Positions 49,534 to 57,235 of a DNA stretch of 64,000 nucleotides are shown here, in pieces. Origin of the DNA: Cyanobium sp. NS01. Its GTDB lineage: Bacteria; Cyanobacteriota; Cyanobacteriia; PCC-6307; Cyanobiaceae. Every line of letters begins with the position of its first letter. The stretch's first letter is position 1. Under the pieces are notes generated by a model. It saw only the letters and a list, made by a program, of their open reading frames with translations, was not told the DNA's origin and did not search any database. The translations under genes were made by a program, and so were the position numbers. Location: NCBI RefSeq assembly GCF_014280235.1, contig NZ_CP047940.1, forward strand, positions 682,001-746,000, written 5' to 3'.

Positions 49534-51048
49534 ATGGCGGTCGAGGGACGGTTGCGCGGGATCGCTCTGACGGCCGGGGCACGGGCCGCCTCGATCCGGG
49601 CCGCCGCCGCTGGCCTGCTGGCGGGCGTCGCCCTGCCGCCGCTGGGCTTCCCCCCCCTGCTCTGGCTGGCCCTGGCCGTGCTCTGGCATGGCAGCAGCGG
49701 TTCGGGGACCCGCCGCCTGGCCACGGGAGGGCTGTGGGGAGCTCTGGCGGTGCTGGTGAGCCACCGCTGGCTGCTCGGCCTCCACCCCCTCGACTGGATC
49801 GGCGTGCCCCTGCCCCTGAGCCTGCCCCTCTGTCTGCTGTTGCTCTTGGTGCTGGCGGCCCTGGGGGCGCTGCTGGTGGCGGGCTGGACCTGGCTGGCCG
49901 GCCTGCTGGGGCCTGAGCGCTGGAGCACGGCCCTGCTGCTGGCCTGCCTCTGGGGCGCCGCTGAACTGGCCCTGGCCCGGGGGCCGCTGTTCTGGCTGGG
50001 GCTGGGGGCGGCTCCCCTGCCCGGCGATCTGCCGCTTGCCGGCCTGGCGGCGCTTGGCGGCAGTGGCCTGGTGGCGGCGGTTCAGGTGCTGCTGGGCTGG
50101 GGCCTCTGGCGCCTGGCGTCGGCGTTCCGCTGGCGGCGGCTGGGGGGGTGGCTGCTGGTGGTTGTGGTGCTGCACGGCAGCGGCGCCGCCCTGCTGGCGC
50201 TGCAACCCGCGGGCGAGGGGGCCGCCGAGCGGGTGCTGGTGCTGCAGCCCGCGATTCCCACCCGCGAGAAACACACCGGGGAAGCGCGGCGGCAGCTGGA
50301 GCAGCAGCTGCAGGCGGCCCTGCTGGAGGCCCAGCAGCGGCAGGCCGTGGCGGTGCTGCTGCCGGAGGGGGCGCTGGGGCTGGAGCCCCGGCTGCCCCAG
50401 CCGGCCCCGGTGGAGCTGCTCAGCGGCGGCTTTCGCTGGCAGGAGGGGCCCGGCGGTCCCGAACAGCGCAGTGCCCTGCTGCGGTTCGGCGTGGGTGACA
50501 GCCGGCCCGCCACGGCGGTGGACAAGCACCGGCTGGTGCCACTCGGGGAGTGGGTGCCCCTGGCTGGCTGGCTGCGCTGGAGCGGCCTCTCAGCCGTGGG
50601 CGGCGTGGAGCCTGGGCCGCCGTCCCGGCTGCTGGCGCGGCCCCAGGGCCCCCTGGGAGTGGCGATCTGCTACGAGCTCTCCGATGGCATGGCCCTGAGC
50701 GCGGCCACCCGGGAGGGCGCCACCTGGTTGCTGGCCAGCGCCAATCTCGATCCCTATCCCTTGATGCTGCAGCAGCAGTTCGCTGCCCTGGCCCAGTTGC
50801 GGGCCATCGAAGCCGGCCGCTGGCTGGTGAGCTCGGCCAACACGGGTCCGGGGCTGCTGGTGGACTCCCGCGGTGAGGTGAAGGGGCGGATGGCCCCAGG
50901 CCGGGCCGGCACGGCTCTGTTTGAACCCGTGCCGATCACCCGGCTCAGCCCCTACGGCCACTGGCGGGAGACGCCCCTGCTGCTGCTGGCGCTGCTGGGC
51001 CTGGGCTTGCGCCGCTGGGAGGGGCGCAGGGCACGGCTCAACCCGTGA
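49534..51048 (+). CDS. lnt: Apolipoprotein N-acyltransferase
   Basis: Inner-membrane enzyme that adds the third acyl chain to lipoproteins. The product from the ATG at 49534 is 504 residues. The first 190 residues hold about six hydrophobic helices (AAAGLLAGVALPPLGFPPLL and others). A nitrilase-type catalytic domain follows: Glu in VLLPEGALGLE, Lys in VDKHRLVPLGEWVP, Cys in VAICYELSDGM. ASANLDPYPLMLQQQFAALAQ and the RWLVSSANTG segment are typical. A GTG at 49474 would add 20 polar residues. Confidence 0.92.
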   Translation: MAVEGRLRGIALTAGARAASIRAAAAGLLAGVALPPLGFPPLLWLALAVLWHGSSGSGTRRLATGGLWGALAVLVSHRWLLGLHPLDWIGVPLPLSLPLCLLLLLVLAALGALLVAGWTWLAGLLGPERWSTALLLACLWGAAELALARGPLFWLGLGAAPLPGDLPLAGLAALGGSGLVAAVQVLLGWGLWRLASAFRWRRLGGWLLVVVVLHGSGAALLALQPAGEGAAERVLVLQPAIPTREKHTGEARRQLEQQLQAALLEAQQRQAVAVLLPEGALGLEPRLPQPAPVELLSGGFRWQEGPGGPEQRSALLRFGVGDSRPATAVDKHRLVPLGEWVPLAGWLRWSGLSAVGGVEPGPPSRLLARPQGPLGVAICYELSDGMALSAATREGATWLLASANLDPYPLMLQQQFAALAQLRAIEAGRWLVSSANTGPGLLVDSRGEVKGRMAPGRAGTALFEPVPITRLSPYGHWRETPLLLLALLGLGLRRWEGRRARLNP

Positions 51049-51127
51049 ACTGGAGCGCCACCTCCACCAGGGTGAAGCCGAGCAGCCCGGCGAGGGCGAG
51101 GAGGGATCCGGAGCTGGTCATCAGCAT
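51038..51127 (-). CDS. Candidate 29-residue single-helix membrane peptide
   Basis: An open frame too short for usual callers: ATG at 51127, TGA at 51040-51038. The product contains a single hydrophobic stretch (SLLALAGLLGFTLVEVALQ). Size and shape resemble the low-molecular-weight subunits of photosynthetic complexes, but I could not match it to PetL, PetM, PetN, PsbM, PsbT, PsbX, PsaI or PsaM. Its end overlaps the lnt stop region on the other strand. It is followed upstream by a low-GC region (51160-51230) that could carry a promoter. Real coding status is uncertain. Confidence 0.35.
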   Translation of the reverse strand: MLMTSSGSLLALAGLLGFTLVEVALQFTG

Positions 51128-51225
51128 GAGCGCCAGGGGCGGTGCGGGGGTGAACCTTGATGGCGAGATTCTGACGAAAACCTTAAGGAAGCGCCCGTAG
51201 CGTTCGTCACCCTCCTACCAATCGT

Positions 51226-51262
51226 CACAGTCCAGCCGCTCAACACAGTCCAGCCCCGCTCA
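51226..51262. repeat. Imperfect tandem repeat before the peroxiredoxin 3' end
   Basis: CACAGTCCAGCCGCTCAA (51226-51243) is followed directly by CACAGTCCAGCCCCGCTCA (51244-51262). It lies in the gap between the candidate small gene and the minus-strand peroxiredoxin stop at 51265. Two copies only; no function inferred. Confidence 0.55.
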
Positions 51263-51264
51263 GC

Positions 51265-51837
51265 TCATCCCTCGAAGCTGCGGCGCGCCTCGCTCACCCC
51301 GGCAGGGCTGGTGCCCTTGAGGTAAGCCAGCATCGTGTCGGCATCGGACACCTCAAAGGGGTCGATGGGGCAGTTGTCCCCGAACTCGGGCTCGGCGAAC
51401 ACCTTCTCGATCACGCCGTCGTTGACGAGCATCGAGTAGCGCCAGGAGCGCAGCCCGAAGCCCAGATTCGACTTGTCGACGAGCATGCCCATCTTGCGGG
51501 TGAACTCGCCGTTGCCATCGGGCAGCAGCATCACGTTGTTGGCGCCCACCTGCTTGCCCCACTGGAACATCACGAAGGCGTCGTTCACCGAGAGGCACAC
51601 GATCGTGTCGATGCCCTGGGCCTGGAACTCGGTGTAGAGCTCCTCGTAGCGGGGCAGGTGGTTGGAGGAGCAGGTGGGGGTGAAGGCGCCGGGCAGGGAG
51701 AAGATCACCACGCGCTTGCCGGCGAAGATCTCGTCGCTGCTGAGGTCTTGCCAGCGGAAGGGGTTGGGGCCGGGCACGGATGCATCGCGCACGCGGGTCT
51801 TGAAGGTGACGCTGGGAACGCGGTTGAGGATGGCCAT
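51265..51837 (-). CDS. Type II (Prx5-like) peroxiredoxin
   Basis: Thiol peroxidase reducing hydrogen peroxide and alkyl peroxides. The 190-residue protein has the peroxidatic Cys56 in [20 protein letters not shown], the Prx5 hallmark. [20 protein letters not shown] and [19 protein letters not shown] follow as in plant and cyanobacterial type II enzymes. A second Cys is in [18 protein letters not shown]. Its upstream region (51838-52003) includes a low-GC, promoter-like stretch near 51900-51930. Confidence 0.93.
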
Positions 51838-52003
51838 GGGGGTTGTGGAAACGGGCGGATGGAACAGGCGAAGCGCTGGCCGGGGCCAGATGCTGCTGAA
51901 GTTAACTCATAATGACTCCGCTTTGCAATAGGCCAGGGCTGCTGGGGACGGGTTCCCTGCCCGGCTGCTGCTGTCAGCCTGGCCCCAGTCGCGCCAGCTC
52001 CGG

Positions 52004-52627
52004 ATGACGCCCTCCTCCTCTGCCGAAGCCCAGCGCTGGGATCGGCGCTACCGCGAGGGGCGTGATGGCTGGGAACTGGGCCAGCCGGCGCCTCCCCTGG
52101 AGCGCTTTCTGCTCCACCACCAGCTGGCTCCCCGGCCGCCTGGGCGGGTGCTGGTGCCGGGCTGCGGCCGCGGCCATGAGGTGGCCCTGCTCGCCGGGGC
52201 CGGGTTCAACGCGGTGGGCCTTGATCTCAGTGCCCTGGCCCTGGAGGAGGCCCGCCGGCGGCATGGTCCCGATCGCCCCGGGCTGCAGTGGCTGCAGGCC
52301 GATCTGCTCGATCCCCCTGCCCTGGAGCAGACGGGGCTCGCTGCCGCCAGCCTCGATGGCGTGCTGGAGCACACCTGCTTCTGCGCCATCGACCCCGCCC
52401 AGCGCCCCAGTTACGCCCACACCATCGCCCGGCTGCTGCGGCCCGGGGGCTGGCTGCTGGGACTGTTCTGGTGCCATGGACGCCCCGGCGGCCCGCCCTG
52501 GGGCAGCGATCCGGAGGCCATTGCCGCGCTCTTTGCCGGGGCTGGCCTGGTGCAGCAGCTCTGGCAACCGGCCGAGGGCTCGGTGCCCCAGCGCCAGCAG
52601 GAGTGGCTGGGGCTGTGGAGCCACTGA
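52004..52627 (+). CDS. TPMT-family SAM-dependent methyltransferase
   Basis: A 207-residue methyltransferase of the thiopurine/halide methyltransferase family. It starts with the family signature WDRRYREGRDGWELGQPAPP. The SAM loop is VLVPGCGRGHEVALLAGAGF near residue 49, and DGVLEHTCFCAIDP near residue 117 contains the conserved EHTCFCAI box. Plant and bacterial relatives methylate halides, thiols or thiocyanate; the substrate here is not known. It converges with pdxH, five bases apart. Confidence 0.88.
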   Translation: MTPSSSAEAQRWDRRYREGRDGWELGQPAPPLERFLLHHQLAPRPPGRVLVPGCGRGHEVALLAGAGFNAVGLDLSALALEEARRRHGPDRPGLQWLQADLLDPPALEQTGLAAASLDGVLEHTCFCAIDPAQRPSYAHTIARLLRPGGWLLGLFWCHGRPGGPPWGSDPEAIAALFAGAGLVQQLWQPAEGSVPQRQQEWLGLWSH

Positions 52628-52631
52628 GATC

Positions 52632-53315
52632 TCAGGGGGCCAGCCGTTCCAGGCGCCAGGGCGGCGCGCTCTGACGGCTGTAGAGGAAGCGGTCGTGCAG
52701 GCGGTTCTCGCGGCCCTGCCAGAACTCGATCGTGGCCGGAACCACGCGAAAGCCGCCCCAGCTGGGCGGCCTCGGGATCTCCCCGGCGGCGAAGCGCTGC
52801 CGCATGTGCTCCCACTGCATCTCCAGGATCTGGCGGGAGCTGATCACCTGGCTCTGCTGCGACACCCAGGCCCCCAGGCGACTTCCCCAGGGCCGTGAGC
52901 GGAAGTAGGCCAGCGACTCGGCAGCGGAGATCCGCTCGGCCTGTCCTTCGATCGCCACCTGACGCTCGAGCACATACCACGGGAACAACAGCGACACCGC
53001 CGGCTGCTGGGCGATCTGGCGCGCCTTGCGGCTCTCGTAGTTGGTGAAGAACACGAAGCCGCGCTGGTCGAAGGCCTTGAGCAGCACCGTGCGGGAGCTC
53101 AGCCGCTGGCCATCACTGCTGCAGAGCACCATGGCGTTGGGCTCCGGCACGGCGGCCGCCTGGGCCTGGGAGAACCAGAGCCGGAACTGCTCCACCGGAT
53201 CCGCGGCCAGCTCCGAGCGCCGCAGGCCGCCGCGGCGATACTCCTGGCGCAGATCCGCGAGTGCCCCGCCGCCCATGCCAGGGTCTGGGCCACGGGTGCT
53301 GTCATCGCCGGCCAT
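52632..53315 (-). CDS. pdxH: Pyridoxamine/pyridoxine 5'-phosphate oxidase
   Basis: FMN enzyme making pyridoxal phosphate. The 227-residue product (ATG at 53315) contains [56 protein letters not shown] (read near residues 61-98), and [21 protein letters not shown]. The C-terminus is [18 protein letters not shown], the FMN/PLP-binding signature. Its start codon shares the palindrome CCATGG with the start of the divergent gene at 53314. An in-frame ATG at 53276 is an alternative that would remove the overlap. Confidence 0.93.
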
Positions 53316-54105
53316 GGAAGCGGAAGGAAAGGTGGAGCCCCTGCTGCAGAGGCTGGCAGGGGTGAGCGGCATGGGGCCGGGGCAGCGCCGCCTGGTGTTG
53401 ATCCTGCCCCAGCTGGGGGATTTCGACAGCCTCGAATACGCCCAGCAACTCGTGCCCGTGCTGCCCCGGCTCGAGGCGGCCGGCATCGCGCTGCTGGCGA
53501 TCGGCCTCGGTGAGGCGGCCGGTGCGCAGCGCTTCTGCGCGTTCACCGGGTTTCCCGCTGACCGGCTGCAGGTGGAGTCGGAGCCTTGGCTGCACCGGGC
53601 CCTGGGCCTCTCCCCAGGCCTGCAGGCTCCGGGCGGACCCTGGCCATCGCTGCTGCTGATGTGCGCTGGGATCGCCTCGCCCGGCACCCTGGCGGAGGTG
53701 CTGCGCGGCTACAGCGGCGACCGCAGCGCCGCCCAGCGCCTTGCCGCCGAAGACACCGTGCTGGTGCCGCCCCTGCCGCCGATCCGCGGCTCGCTGCTGG
53801 CCCTGGCCGGCGGGGAGGGGTTCCTGCGGCCCTTCGAGCTGGCCCTGCTGCGGCTGGGCAACATGGCGGAAGTGCTCGGCCGCTGGCGCACCTATGTGCC
53901 CCACGACCGCCACCTCACCCAGCGCGGCGGCACCTTCCTGCTGGAGACCGACGACACCCTCCTGTACAGCCACCGCGATCCCGGCCTGCTGGGCTATTCG
54001 GCCACCATGGCGAGACCGCTGAGCTTCCTGGATCCGTTCCTGGAGCCGCCGGTGTCGCCACCCACCCCAACGCTGAGCCCCTCCCCTCGCCTGGAATCAC
54101 CGTGA
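53314..54105 (+). CDS. AhpC/TSA_2 (peroxiredoxin-like) family protein
   Basis: A 263-residue protein with a thioredoxin-like fold of the peroxiredoxin-like group. [20 protein letters not shown] opens the domain, with [25 protein letters not shown] next. [22 protein letters not shown] gives the late strand pattern. It lacks the classical PxxxTxxC peroxidatic motif at the first helix; its only nearby Cys is in RFCAFTG. Residues 240-263 are Pro/Ser-rich. The DUF1499 gene follows with a four-base overlap. Function is unproven. Confidence 0.75.
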
Positions 54106-54533
54106 CCATGCTGCTGCCTCCGTTCCTGATCCAGAGCCTGCTGGCCCTGAGCCTGGGCCTGTTTCACCTGGTGGGTCCGGTGCCGACCGACCTGGGCCTG
54201 GAGCAGGGGGCCCTGGCGGCCTGCCCATCGCCCGCCCACTGCGCCAGGGAGAGCTGGCCGGTGGCCGACCCTGAGGCGGCGCTGCAGCTGGTGCTGCCGG
54301 TGCTGCTGGAGCAGCCCCGGGTTGAGCTGGTCGAGCAGCAGGGCGGCTAGGTGCATGCCACCGCCAGCAGTGCCCTGTTCGGCTTCGTGGATGACGTGGA
54401 GCTCTACGCCGATCCCGATGCCGGGCTGCTGCAGGCCCGTTCGGTGTCGCGGCTGGGGGATTCCGACCTGGGCGTGAACGCCAAGCGGCTGGCGCTGCTC
54501 CAGGCCGCCCTCACACCCGGGCCCGGCGCTTGA
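54102..54533 (+). pseudogene. DUF1499 family gene interrupted by an in-frame TAG
   Basis: The frame from GTG 54102 (or ATG 54108) codes a hydrophobic leader, then ACPSPAHCARESWPVADPEA and VELVEQQGG, then TAG at 54348-54350. Directly after, in the same frame, it continues VHATASSALFGFVDDVELYA, DPDAGLLQARSVSRLGDSDL and GVNAKRLALLQ to the TGA at 54531-54533. These are the two halves of one DUF1499 protein, whose usual text at the break is G-Y-(L/V)-H-A. A TAC/TAT tyrosine codon has most likely become TAG by one base change. It could also be a sequencing error. The 3' end overlaps the minus-strand cNMP gene. Confidence 0.82.
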
Positions 54534-54903
54534 GGTCGCGCAGGCGGCTGCCCAGGGACTGCAGCATCTCCAGGGCGAACATCGGCATCTCCTGCACGGC
54601 GAACAGGAATTCCTGCTGGTTCATCACCAGCAGCTTGCAGGGCGTCTTGGCGGTGGCGGTGCCGAAGCGGCGGTGCGAGGGATCGAGGAAGGCGCCGATG
54701 CCGAAGGTCTCGCCCGGGCCGATGGTCTCCACCAGGCTGCCGGCATCCCAGTCGAGTTCCACCGTGCCCTCCAGCAGGCCGTAGAGGCAATCACCGGGGT
54801 CGTTGCTGTGGAACAGCACGTCCCCGGCAGCGATGGTCAGAACGCTGCGCTTCTGTGCCAGGGCCTCGATGGTGCTGAGGGCGTTCGTGGAGCTGAGGGA
54901 CAT
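54511..54903 (-). CDS. Stand-alone cyclic-nucleotide-binding domain protein
   Basis: A 130-residue protein (ATG at 54903). The Crp/Fnr-type beta-roll is visible: RSVLTIAAGDVLFHSNDPGD, CLYGLLEGTVELDW, GPGETFGIGAFLDPSHRRFG and TAKTPCKLLVMNQQEFLFAV. The chain ends after the C-helix (LEMLQSLGSRLRDLKRRARV), with no helix-turn-helix. The R residue of the phosphate-binding cassette in FLDPSHRRFGTA may allow cNMP binding, but this is not certain. The frame is open much further upstream without homology. Its 3' end overlaps the DUF1499 remnant tail. Confidence 0.82.
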   Translation of the reverse strand: MSLSSTNALSTIEALAQKRSVLTIAAGDVLFHSNDPGDCLYGLLEGTVELDWDAGSLVETIGPGETFGIGAFLDPSHRRFGTATAKTPCKLLVMNQQEFLFAVQEMPMFALEMLQSLGSRLRDLKRRARV

Positions 54904-55006
54904 GGGGAGGACAGCGACAGGGTCCTCGCAGAGGACAGGTCCATGGATAGCCCCCGCTGGCCAAGCTGCGGTTAAGAGAGGATTAGTGCGGTAGGCCTGG
55001 GCCGTC

Positions 55007-55522
55007 GTGGGCATCGCTGTCGCAGGAATCATCGATCCGTCATGGGCCCGCTCCCTGGATCGCTTCTCGGGTCGGGATGGCGTGGTGAACGTGTGGATCA
55101 ACCGCCGCGGGGCCTTCGGTGCTCTGCCGGTGTCGCGCGTCGAAGCGCGGTTCATCCGCGGCACCTTCCGGCGGCTGGATCGCATCACAGGCCTGCGCTT
55201 CGCCTACACCAGCCGCCGCGTTTCGGATCTCGATATCAGCGCCGTGCAAGACCTGGGCGGCAGCACAATCGGCCTCGCCTCCCGCCGCCCCGGCTGGTTT
55301 GAGGTGGCCTGGGAAGGACGCCGCGGAGGCCGGCTCACCCGCAGTGAGCGGCGCATCATCAACCATGAGATCGGCCACGTGCTCGGGCTCGATCACCCCT
55401 TCGGCAACGGCTTCAACCCCCGCTACACCACCAAGGACACGGTGATGTCTTACAACGTCCGCCGCAACTTCGGCTACACCAGCTCCGATGTGGCGGCCCT
55501 GAAGTTCATCTGGGGAGGTTGA
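55007..55522 (+). CDS. Small metzincin-type zinc metalloprotease (M10-like)
   Basis: A 171-residue protein consisting of little more than a protease domain. The zinc site is HEIGHVLGLDH (His120, Glu121, His124, His130), and the Met-turn is VMSYN with Met147. The N-terminal part (VVNVWINRRGAFGAL; RRLDRITGLRFAYTS) fits reprolysin/serralysin-like folds. No signal peptide, prodomain Cys switch or RTX repeats are seen. GTG at 55007 is the apparent start. Neighbours are accessory genes, so a secreted or toxin-like origin is possible but unproven. Confidence 0.78.
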   Translation: MGIAVAGIIDPSWARSLDRFSGRDGVVNVWINRRGAFGALPVSRVEARFIRGTFRRLDRITGLRFAYTSRRVSDLDISAVQDLGGSTIGLASRRPGWFEVAWEGRRGGRLTRSERRIINHEIGHVLGLDHPFGNGFNPRYTTKDTVMSYNVRRNFGYTSSDVAALKFIWGG

Positions 55523-55526
55523 GCTC

Positions 55527-55543
55527 GCCCTCTGCATGGGCGG
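55527..55543. repeat. Hairpin after the metalloprotease gene
   Basis: CGCCC and GGGCG pair across a seven-base loop shortly after the TGA at 55522, followed by GTTAAACC. The T-run is poor. It could end transcripts from either side, since the next gene is convergent. Confidence 0.4.
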
Positions 55544-55563
55544 TTAAACCTGATTCAACGAGG

Positions 55564-56460
55564 CTATTGATACAGATTGACGAGGACAATGCGTGTGGCA
55601 GAGGCCGCTTGCGGGTGGCCTCGGTGGACACCATGTTGCGCTGAAATCACCATGTCGCCGGCGCGGCAGAAAACGGGAAGAGCGACATGTCCAGCCAGCA
55701 AGCGGTATTCATGCTTGTTGAGGCCGTGGTGCTCGTTAAAGGCCTGGTTCTTCTGTCGCAGGGCTGCATCGTGGTGTGAACACATGATGTAGCAGTAGGG
55801 GCCTGTATCAAAACAATTGACGTCGTTGGCATAAACAAATGACTTGACCTTGATTCTCTCTCCGTCGCAGTGGTAGAAGCGCGTGTTCTCCACTCCCTTG
55901 CTGACGTAGAGGTTTCGGCACTTCACTTTCAGCTTTCTGTCGAAAGCTCTGCGGGCCAGGGTCTCAACGAGGTCTTCATGCTGGCAGTTGAGAATCAGTT
56001 GCCGATTCTCCGGAACAAGATTCTCAGGATGGAAAACATCCATCATGCCGTCGTCTTCTTCATGCCGGAAATTCACCACCGGCTTGGTGCTCTCCACAAG
56101 GGCCTTGTAGCCACGTAGCAGCCGATGCTCACCGCGGTTGAGGATCAAGTGCGGTAGCTCACGCCCCGGCGTCAACGCGGCAACGTCGTCCCAGGTGCGT
56201 TCTGCCATGGTGGCTAGTGCGTCAACGGCCTGCCTGGACGCCGCGCCACGAATCACGATCAGGCCAGTGCGAGAGAGGGTCTGGGATGCCTCCTGAACCT
56301 TCGATCGGTGCCTTCGCAGCGTCTTGAGGTCGAAGCAGATGGCACGAGTCTCACGCCATCGCCGCAGGCCGGAGTGGAGTTTTGGCTCCTGATAGAGCGG
56401 GGGAATGTCCCCAGACAGAGCCATGCCTGCCGAAGCTGATCCTGTGGACAGTAACAGCAA
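55564..56460 (-). CDS. Fe(II)/2-oxoglutarate dioxygenase-like (PhyH-type) protein, low GC
   Basis: A 298-residue protein that fits the phytanoyl-CoA dioxygenase fold. FYHCDGERIKV supplies an HxD pair (His197, Asp199). GDMVISAQHGVHRGHP supplies the distal His (276 or 279), and Arg290 in SATRIVLVN is placed for 2-oxoglutarate. RTGLIVIRGAASRQAVDAL is the usual N-terminal PhyH text. ATG at 56424 is an alternative start. GC is strikingly low: 24 of 60 bases in 55801-55860, against about 47 of 60 in a typical core line (53581-53640). This points to recent transfer. Substrate is unknown. Confidence 0.65.
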   Translation of the reverse strand: MLLLSTGSASAGMALSGDIPPLYQEPKLHSGLRRWRETRAICFDLKTLRRHRSKVQEASQTLSRTGLIVIRGAASRQAVDALATMAERTWDDVAALTPGRELPHLILNRGEHRLLRGYKALVESTKPVVNFRHEEDDGMMDVFHPENLVPENRQLILNCQHEDLVETLARRAFDRKLKVKCRNLYVSKGVENTRFYHCDGERIKVKSFVYANDVNCFDTGPYCYIMCSHHDAALRQKNQAFNEHHGLNKHEYRLLAGHVALPVFCRAGDMVISAQHGVHRGHPQAASATRIVLVNLYQ

Positions 56461-56828
56461 TCAATCGTTATGGAAGACCAAGTTGGGGGCTCGGGAGCGC
56501 TACTACGGAGCCCTGCAGATCGGCTGTCCCGTGGACTTCTACCAAGGGCGCCATGACCCTGACCACAGCGCCTGGCTCAGCTACTTCGTGGATGTGATCC
56601 AGCAGGCTGCTGCGGATCTGGCCCAGCGCGCCGAAGCCCTTCAGGCCCATCAGGAACCGCCCGATCCTCAGCCGCTTGCGGGCGTGCCTTGCCGCTGGCG
56701 AGGGCCAGGCGGACCAATTCAAGCCGGCTGATCTGGAGGAGTGGTTCGCCGTGTCGCCAACCGCAGCGGCAGGAATAAGCCAAGTGAATCCTGGACTTTC
56801 TGCCCGGCATCAATCAGATCCAGACTGA
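56405..56828 (+). pseudogene. Truncated, frameshifted Fic/DOC-family remnant
   Basis: The frame from 56405 carries text of the C-terminal half of Fic proteins from about 56489: ERYYGALQIGCPVDFYQGRH, DPDHSAWLSYFVDVIQQAAA. Near 56640-56661 homology moves to the +1 frame, which reads PILSRLRACLAAGEGQADQF and KPADLEEWFAVSPTAAAGIS, the winged-helix end of Fic proteins. It reaches a TGA at 56826-56828. The N-terminal half with the HPFxxGNGRxGR AMPylation motif is absent. Its 5' end abuts the dioxygenase gene, so the gene was probably cut when that gene arrived. Confidence 0.72.
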
Positions 56829-57162
56829 AACCAGTCTGAGACACCCGATGGCCGCCTGGACCGTGAGACCGTGGAGCTCTTCTGAGGTGGACTAGGGGTG
56901 CTTGGTCATCGCTATGCCGTAGCAAGCAGGTGACCAGCAGGGTATGGAGCGACTGTGGCTTGGCCCGGGTGGGCCCCGCGCAGAAGCTGGGCTGGATGAT
57001 CGTCACCGGATCAACGACCGTGAAAGCCGCATCTCAGTGAGGCAATCGAGGCAAGCAGCCAGGAAGGGGCGATTCTGCGCCCATTTCTGCGCTCACTGAT
57101 GGAGTGGAGACAAGAAGAAGGTCCACCCGCTTCAGAAGCCAGGTGGGAAAGCGTACTTGGAA
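56829..57162. other. About 330 bases with no recognisable gene
   Basis: Open frames on both strands here are short and have no recognisable motif. At its left edge CAGACTG (56821-56827) and CAGTCTG (56832-56838) form a small inverted repeat. The rest is of mixed composition with scattered stops in every frame and is likely decayed coding DNA between the Fic remnant and tRNA-Ala. No copy of the tRNA 3' end was seen nearby. Confidence 0.6.
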
Positions 57163-57235
57163 TGGAGCCAAGCGGATTCGAACCGCTGACCCCCTGCATG
57201 CCATGCAGGTGCTCTACCAGCTGAGCTATGGCCCC
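57163..57235 (-). tRNA. tRNA-Ala(GGC)
   Basis: Read on minus, the 73-base sequence has acceptor GGGGCCA/TGGCTCC with the G3-U70 wobble pair that marks alanine tRNAs. The anticodon stem CCTGC/GCAGG encloses ATGGCAT with anticodon GGC. The T-arm contains GGTTCGAATCC and the discriminator is A. No CCA is encoded. The accessory genes lie on its 3' side, the usual side for tRNA-linked insertions. Confidence 0.95.

What the first reader, a model, noticed from the sequence alone, without database searches (positions are those of the whole stretch)
56405..56828. Fic-family remnant cut by the dioxygenase gene
C-terminal Fic text appears in two frames with a +1 shift near 56640-56661, while the catalytic half is missing exactly where the dioxygenase begins. 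This is a fossil of an AMPylation-type system and marks an insertion junction near 56460.
Basis: partly seen in the sequence, partly recalled or inferred. Interest (0 to 1): 0.52.

Follow-up and report, generated by a model that had tools for sequence, protein, structure and literature searches.

The report
Broken scrap of DISARM phage-defence operon
This stretch is a decayed scrap of a bacterial anti-phage defence operon (the tail of its Fic gene plus a small piece of its helicase gene), a broken second copy of an operon that the same cyanobacterium still carries in full elsewhere.

Summary
The Fic text is real. Window 56491-56812 (+) is a broken copy, 311 of 322 aligned bases identical, of the last two-fifths and trailer of an intact fic in the same genome (G000:C1:2618982-2620127). 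Two deletions explain the frame changes: 41 bp at about 56667 and 122 bp at 56756-56767, each between short direct repeats. Twenty-five bases further on, 56838-56878 matches drmA. The intact fic lies in a complete class 1 DISARM operon (drmD-fic-drmMI-drmA-drmB-drmC); the two scraps keep its order and strand. So this is probably what is left of a second DISARM copy, beside a tRNA-Ala that looks like an integration site in two relatives. That the dioxygenase gene cut fic is not supported: its ATG (56424) stops 66 bp short of the fic homology, and no fic was found on its far side. The remnant is ordinary decay. More interesting is its parent: among 21 drmD loci of this family that could be read, fic follows drmD in 9, drmMI directly in 9, another gene in 3, so Fic looks like a swappable passenger of class 1 DISARM. 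My five literature searches showed no description of this.

The parts
56491..56812 (+). fic pseudogene fragment: copy of the last two-fifths of a 381-aa fic (from the end of codon 232) plus the 34 bp after its stop codon
   Evidence: 311 of 322 aligned bases identical to intact fic G000:C1:2618982-2620127
56663..56674 (+).
   Evidence: gap against the intact gene; the bases are present in ATX 6A2 and the two further orthologues aligned
56756..56767 (+). 122-bp deletion scar between two copies of GCCAACC[A/G]CAGC
56813..56837 (.). 25-bp unassigned spacer where 6275 bp of the operon (rest of the fic trailer, drmMI, first part of drmA) are missing
   Evidence: operon coordinates 10052 and 16328 flank it; no exact match of 11 bp or more to the operon
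56838..56878 (+). drmA scrap (38 of 41 bp; codons about 443-456, just before the GGGKT motif)
   Evidence: E = 2.6e-10 in the own genome; the target gene is DrmA by PADLOC model
56425..56490 (.). unassigned 66 bp between the likely dioxygenase start and the first fic base
   Evidence: besides itself only matches of 22 bp or less, E 0.18 or worse, in the own genome
56879..57162 (.). unassigned tract between the drmA scrap and the tRNA 3' end
   Evidence: nothing better than E = 0.13 in the own genome besides the drmA match; only weak hits in relatives
57163..57235 (-). tRNA-Ala (GGC); its 3' end faces the scraps and is duplicated as a partial copy in two relatives
55564..56424 (-). neighbouring gene with an open frame of 286 aa, weakly PhyH-dioxygenase-like; not part of the remnant
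   Evidence: Pfam PhyH E = 0.071, below cut-off; homologues; start set; PDB oxidase/hydroxylase E = 0.084

Best explanation
A second copy of at least 6.8 kb of a class 1 DISARM operon (from fic codon ~232 to drmA codon ~456) once lay beside the tRNA-Ala gene, either duplicated from the resident operon or brought in from a very close strain. Redundant and not maintained, it collapsed by deletions, two of them clearly between short direct repeats, leaving two scraps in original order and strand. It no longer encodes a Fic enzyme and very likely does nothing. Shown: descent, order, deletions, missing catalytic core. Inferred: that a longer or functional second copy once existed here, the route of arrival, and lack of function. 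The parent operon presumably restricts phage DNA, with Fic as an optional AMP-transferase passenger (inferred from family knowledge).
For: fic copy 311/322 identical to the own intact gene, 295/322 to Cyanobium ATX 6A2, the nearest of the 12 other orthologues compared. drmA scrap E = 2.6e-10, same strand and order. Intact operon by PADLOC: DrmA 6.5e-248, DrmMI 0, DrmD 0, DrmB 1.1e-59, DrmC 1.6e-143, with Fic in between (coordinates). Both deletions at direct repeats; the three intact orthologues aligned besides the own gene carry the bases. With ATX 6A2 as outgroup, 10 changes on the window branch against 2 on the intact branch (two-sided binomial 0.039). 12 of 31 Fic relatives in named genomes lie next to drmD: those at 71% identity or more.
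Against: Only two pieces survive; drmD, drmMI, drmB and drmC leave no detectable trace, so a whole second operon is not proved. The drmA piece is 41 bp. The 66-, 25- and 284-bp tracts around the pieces are unassigned. The 10:2 asymmetry is small, 5 of the 12 changes lie after the stop codon near the end of the homology, and one window change lies in the repeat of the second deletion. No copy of the tRNA 3' end flanks the scraps, and none of 8 ORFs scanned between 52004 and 57199 matches an integrase family. The other 12 genus genomes lack the scrap, so they cannot date its arrival.
Confidence: 0.8

Rival explanations
1. One reading: an intact fic at this tRNA was cut by insertion of the dioxygenase gene.
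For: The fic homology begins 66 bp from the likely dioxygenase start, and the 5' part of fic is missing.
Against: No fic 5' half on the far side of the dioxygenase gene; 66 bp of other DNA in between; no fic in the flanks held of this tRNA in 12 relatives. I ran no separate search for target repeats at the dioxygenase ends. Any deletion ending there gives the same picture.
Confidence: 0.04
2. The fragments were never a functional operon here: short DISARM pieces were pasted in by illegitimate recombination or by transformation with broken DNA.
For: Only two pieces, no att repeats, unassigned filler around them.
Against: Order and strand of the operon are kept, and the fic piece itself shows two internal repeat-mediated deletions, which is how a longer copy would decay.
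Confidence: 0.15
3. The remnant still has a role: ORF 56405-56731 (108 aa) makes a small protein carrying Fic residues ~233-290, or the DNA acts as a recombination or regulatory site.
For: An ATG-started ORF of 108 aa covers the first fic piece.
Against: The first ~29 and last ~21 residues are not in the Fic frame; no catalytic motif; no Pfam match; 10 window-branch changes against 2. In one search, 6 of 13 genus genomes (own included) had any match: three relatives (G009, G004, G006) at the fic of their DISARM loci, two (G012, G001) only 22-38 bp.
Confidence: 0.04

Closest known systems
Class 1 DISARM (drmD, drmMI, drmA, drmB, drmC)
   Same: The parent operon in this genome has all five genes by PADLOC models; the window scraps derive from it or a near twin. 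That these five define class 1 is recalled.
   Different: A fic gene sits between drmD and drmMI; in the window only fic tail and drmA scraps remain.
Fic/Doc proteins, PF02661; PADLOC 'SoFic'
   Same: The parent protein matches PF02661 (5.3e-19) and SoFic (6.4e-49), with HPFTDGNGRCGR and an N-terminal STRIEG motif (reading the latter as the inhibitory motif of class II Fic is recalled).
   Different: SoFic is recalled as a stand-alone defence gene; here Fic is a gene inside DISARM. The window copy lacks the catalytic motif.
tRNA-associated genomic islands
   Same: Partial copies (47 and 48 bp, 96% and 90%) of the tRNA-Ala 3' end lie 2.8 kb (G006) and 28.7 kb (G001) from the tRNA and are not tRNA genes by ARAGORN; G001 has an integrase-like gene beside the tRNA.
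   Different: No such repeat was found in the window, and no integrase match among the 8 window ORFs scanned.

Membership tests
Fic enzyme (PF02661) | Catalytic motif HPFx[D/E]GNGRxGR | tested here: not met
   Missing from the window copy, which starts at codon ~232; the motif is at 194-205 of the intact protein.
Fic enzyme (PF02661) | Descent from a fic gene | tested here: met
   311 of 322 bases. Pfam sees nothing in the fragments; its PF02661 match in the intact protein is residues 108-210, all missing here.
Class 1 DISARM, intact parent locus | drmD, drmMI, drmA, drmB, drmC together on one strand | tested here: met
Class 1 DISARM, intact parent locus | Protection against phage | not testable with these tools
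   Needs phage challenge.
Class 1 DISARM, window remnant | Intact core genes | tested here: not met
   Only a fic tail and 41 bp of drmA.
tRNA-borne integrated element, window | Direct repeat of the tRNA 3' end flanking the insert | tested here: not met
   No second copy in the window (short or tRNA-Val matches only).
tRNA-borne integrated element, window | Integrase gene beside it | tested here: inconclusive
   None among 8 ORFs scanned between 52004 and 57199; other ORFs were not scanned.

The most novel reading that the evidence does not exclude
In picocyanobacteria the boundary between drmD and drmMI of class 1 DISARM is an exchange slot, and a Fic AMP-transferase with an intact active site and self-inhibition motif is one of its cargoes. 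Fic would then be an alternative effector (AMPylating a host or phage target when DISARM senses or fails to stop a phage), gained, lost and broken repeatedly; the window fossil is one such loss.
Probability: 0.35. Interest if true: 0.6.

Novelty: new member of a known kind. Interest (0 to 1): 0.3.

Why it matters
As a remnant it is ordinary: decayed second copies of defence genes are expected. It matters because it points to its parent, a class 1 DISARM that carries a Fic gene between drmD and drmMI. If Fic is a real DISARM effector, phage defence by DNA restriction would be joined to protein AMPylation in one operon, which can be tested by comparing natural operons with and without fic.

Tried and rejected
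Dioxygenase insertion into fic: rejected (see rivals). Pfam scan of the fragments at E up to 10 gave 0 families for the three Fic-side frames; not evidence against, since the PF02661 match of the intact protein lies wholly in the missing part. Plasmid collection, blastn distant: no match. IMG/VR viral contigs: one stretch only, a weak match of 29 query residues at 48%, so no viral carrier of this Fic was found; the phage collection was not searched. Search for DISARM traces in the three unassigned tracts (375 bp together): one, none and three exact matches of 11-12 bp, two of them of 12 bp; 60 random 375-bp window stretches gave on average 4.2 matches of 12 bp or more, so nothing. tblastx of 56870-57162 against relatives and the own DISARM region: only weak hits (best E = 0.001 over 19 residues, antisense within drmA), not taken up. 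Fic as a conserved DISARM gene beyond picocyanobacteria: not supported; the other 19 of 31 Fic relatives (65% identity or less in the best segment; filamentous cyanobacteria, Bacillota and others) show no drmD, drmMI or drmA at E <= 1e-8 in the DNA held, some of which is short. A 26% match between drmMI and G001 DNA (E = 0.006) is taken as an unrelated methylase and was not followed.

Full report
WHAT IS THERE. The window lies at G000:C1:682001-746000 of a one-contig 2.75-Mb genome. Its nearest named relatives by Fic sequence are Cyanobium and Synechococcus. Searching 56380-57160 in the own genome gave three matches besides itself: 56491-56767 (E = 8.5e-109) and 56756-56812 (6.3e-16), both to the region of an intact fic gene, and 56838-56878 (5.7e-10) to a place about 6.3 kb further on. 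The intact fic is 381 aa with PF02661 at 5.3e-19. Base by base, 311 of 322 aligned positions agree; with Cyanobium ATX 6A2, the nearest of 12 other orthologues compared, 295 of 322.

THE FRAME SHIFTS. Against the intact gene the copy lacks 41 bp at about 56667 and 122 bp at 56756-56767 (163 bp in all). At the first site the intact gene has CTCACCCG at both ends of the lost stretch; at the second, GCCAACCACAGC and GCCAACCGCAGC. Deletion between short direct repeats is the simplest cause (inference). The lost bases are present in ATX 6A2 and in the two further orthologues aligned, so these are deletions in the window copy. They carry the fic reading from one frame to the next and, for the last five residues and the stop, to the third.

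THE PARENT IS A DISARM OPERON. Around the intact fic, on one strand, lie drmD (2620131-2623613), fic (2618982-2620127, starting 3 bases after the drmD stop), drmMI (2614687-2618862), drmA (2610459-2613998), drmB (2608546-2610438) and drmC (2607752-2608546). PADLOC models: DrmD E = 0, DrmMI 0, DrmA 6.5e-248, DrmB 1.1e-59 (484 of its residues given), DrmC 1.6e-143. The 41-bp scrap at 56838-56878 comes from drmA, just before its GGGKT motif. In the window the fic trailer and the drmA scrap are 25 bp apart; in the operon they are 6275 bp apart, in the same order and strand. I therefore read the two pieces as what is left of a second DISARM copy.

THE DIOXYGENASE DID NOT CUT IT. The neighbour's true start is probably the ATG at 56424: DNA homology with its closest homologue (G003) covers 55567-56424 and stops. 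From there to the first fic base at 56491 are 66 bp without a significant relative in the genome. No fic or drmD match lies beyond the dioxygenase gene in 50850-55570; blastn at E up to 0.5 gave only noise there (0.014 or worse), and tblastn with the six operon proteins gave nothing at E up to 0.01. The gene's family name is itself weak: PhyH E = 0.071, below the cut-off; best PDB match an oxidase/hydroxylase at E = 0.084; NCBIfam nothing of use. Homologues were found in 9 of 60 genomes, the own one counted and two of the nine weak.

THE tRNA. All 13 genus genomes searched, the own one included, have the tRNA-Ala/lexA region. Its downstream side varies: in seven (G004, G005, G007, G008, G009, G010, G012) the segment matching window positions up to about 50849-50996 ends 0.3-2.6 kb from the tRNA, while in G011 pieces of window 52632-55515 are shared and then 5.4 kb differ. 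In G006 and G001 a second, partial copy of the tRNA 3' end (47 bp at 96%, 48 bp at 90%) lies 2.8 and 28.7 kb away and is not a tRNA gene. G001 has a 422-aa protein beside the tRNA matching PHROG integrases (1.2e-14); G006 has a weak integrase-like piece (0.022); Pfam at E up to 0.001 and NCBIfam (G001 protein only) found neither. So the tRNA looks like an integration site in the genus, but the window shows no tRNA repeat, and none of 8 ORFs scanned between 52004 and 57199 matches an integrase. No DISARM gene was found in the flanks held for 12 relatives (0.4 to about 9 kb on that side), nor in the two 16-kb stretches of the G001 island region apart from a 26% match taken as unrelated.

DECAY. 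With ATX 6A2 as outgroup, 10 differences fall on the window branch and 2 on the intact gene's branch (two-sided binomial 0.039); 5 of these 12 lie after the stop codon, and one window change lies in the repeat of the second deletion. The numbers are small. Together with the lost core and the shifts they fit a pseudogene.

FIC IN DISARM. Of 31 Fic relatives in named genomes, 12 (those at 71% identity or more) lie next to drmD, in one (L072) only a short drmD piece; 10 of the 12 also show drmMI (not L057, L072). The other 19 show no DISARM gene in the DNA held. Twelve genes, the own one and 11 of these 12 (L072, broken, left out), were read for motifs: 11 of 12 keep HPFx[D/E]GNGRxGR in full (L063 lacks the last R) and 12 of 12 keep STRIEG; of three distant relatives read beside them, one has the full core motif. 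In 300 family genomes, Fic matches at E <= 1e-60 occur in 13 and drmD matches at E <= 1e-100 in 35, the own genome included. One search lists 44 drmD places; 30 loci were returned (four fragments at 70% identity or more were not). Of the 24 returned at 72% or more, three do not reach the drmD end; of the remaining 21, fic follows in 9 (one of them broken, G006), drmMI follows directly in 9, and another gene follows in 3 (L132, L138, L150). None of the 6 more distant loci (about 50%) shows fic. In G006 the fic inside DISARM has itself lost its core (residues 77-242), an independent loss. The three other slot genes had no Pfam match at cut-off.

LITERATURE. Searches, all in the open-licence library: DISARM+Fic+drmD (0 papers); two of DISARM, Fic, 'defence system' (188 papers, 10 listed); DISARM+Fic (24 papers, 20 listed, none by title about a Fic gene in DISARM); DISARM+cyanobacteria+drmD (3 papers); DISARM+drmMI+accessory (2 papers). 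I saw passages of three papers: PMC9716671 (an incomplete DISARM in an Antarctic Synechococcus-like cyanobacterium; 'Fic' 0 times), PMC9142583 (DrmAB structure; mentions additional auxiliary genes; 'Fic' 0 times by the listing) and PMC12458937 (YprA helicase preprint; 'Fic' 0 times). The original DISARM paper was not looked up or read, so whether it lists Fic among the auxiliary genes is open.

VERDICT. The remnant is an ordinary defence-gene fossil; the lead worth keeping is the swappable drmD-drmMI slot with Fic as one cargo.

Noticed in passing
L131-L154 (drmD loci): The drmD-drmMI boundary of picocyanobacterial class 1 DISARM holds fic (9 of the 21 loci that could be read), nothing (9) or another gene (3).
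   Followed up: partly
L132:470-1492 (-): 340-aa gene in the drmD-drmMI slot of G224; its start looks PIN-nuclease-like to me (recalled); no Pfam or NCBIfam match.
   Followed up: partly
L150:695-1495 (-): 266-aa gene in the same slot of G272, with hydrophobic stretches by eye; no informative family match.
   Followed up: partly
L149:4855-5498 (G006:C1:1998144-1998787): fic inside another Cyanobium DISARM has lost residues 77-242: a second, independent Fic decay; a TIR/DUF4062-like gene (below cut-off) lies downstream on the other strand.
   Followed up: partly
G001:C1:2724091-2752830: A 28.7-kb stretch between a partial copy of the tRNA-Ala 3' end and the tRNA itself, with an integrase-like gene by the tRNA: a likely genomic island.
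   Followed up: partly
L007:6045-6401 (+); Fic match G000:C1:1346077-1346268: A separate small Fic-family protein (118 aa, HPFVDGNKR, Doc-like by recall) in the same genome; one of four PF02661 places.
   Followed up: no
window 50997-57162: About 6 kb between the segment shared with relatives and tRNA-Ala; seven relatives have only 0.3-2.6 kb there and G011 has a partly shared alternative: a variable region of the chromosome.
   Followed up: partly
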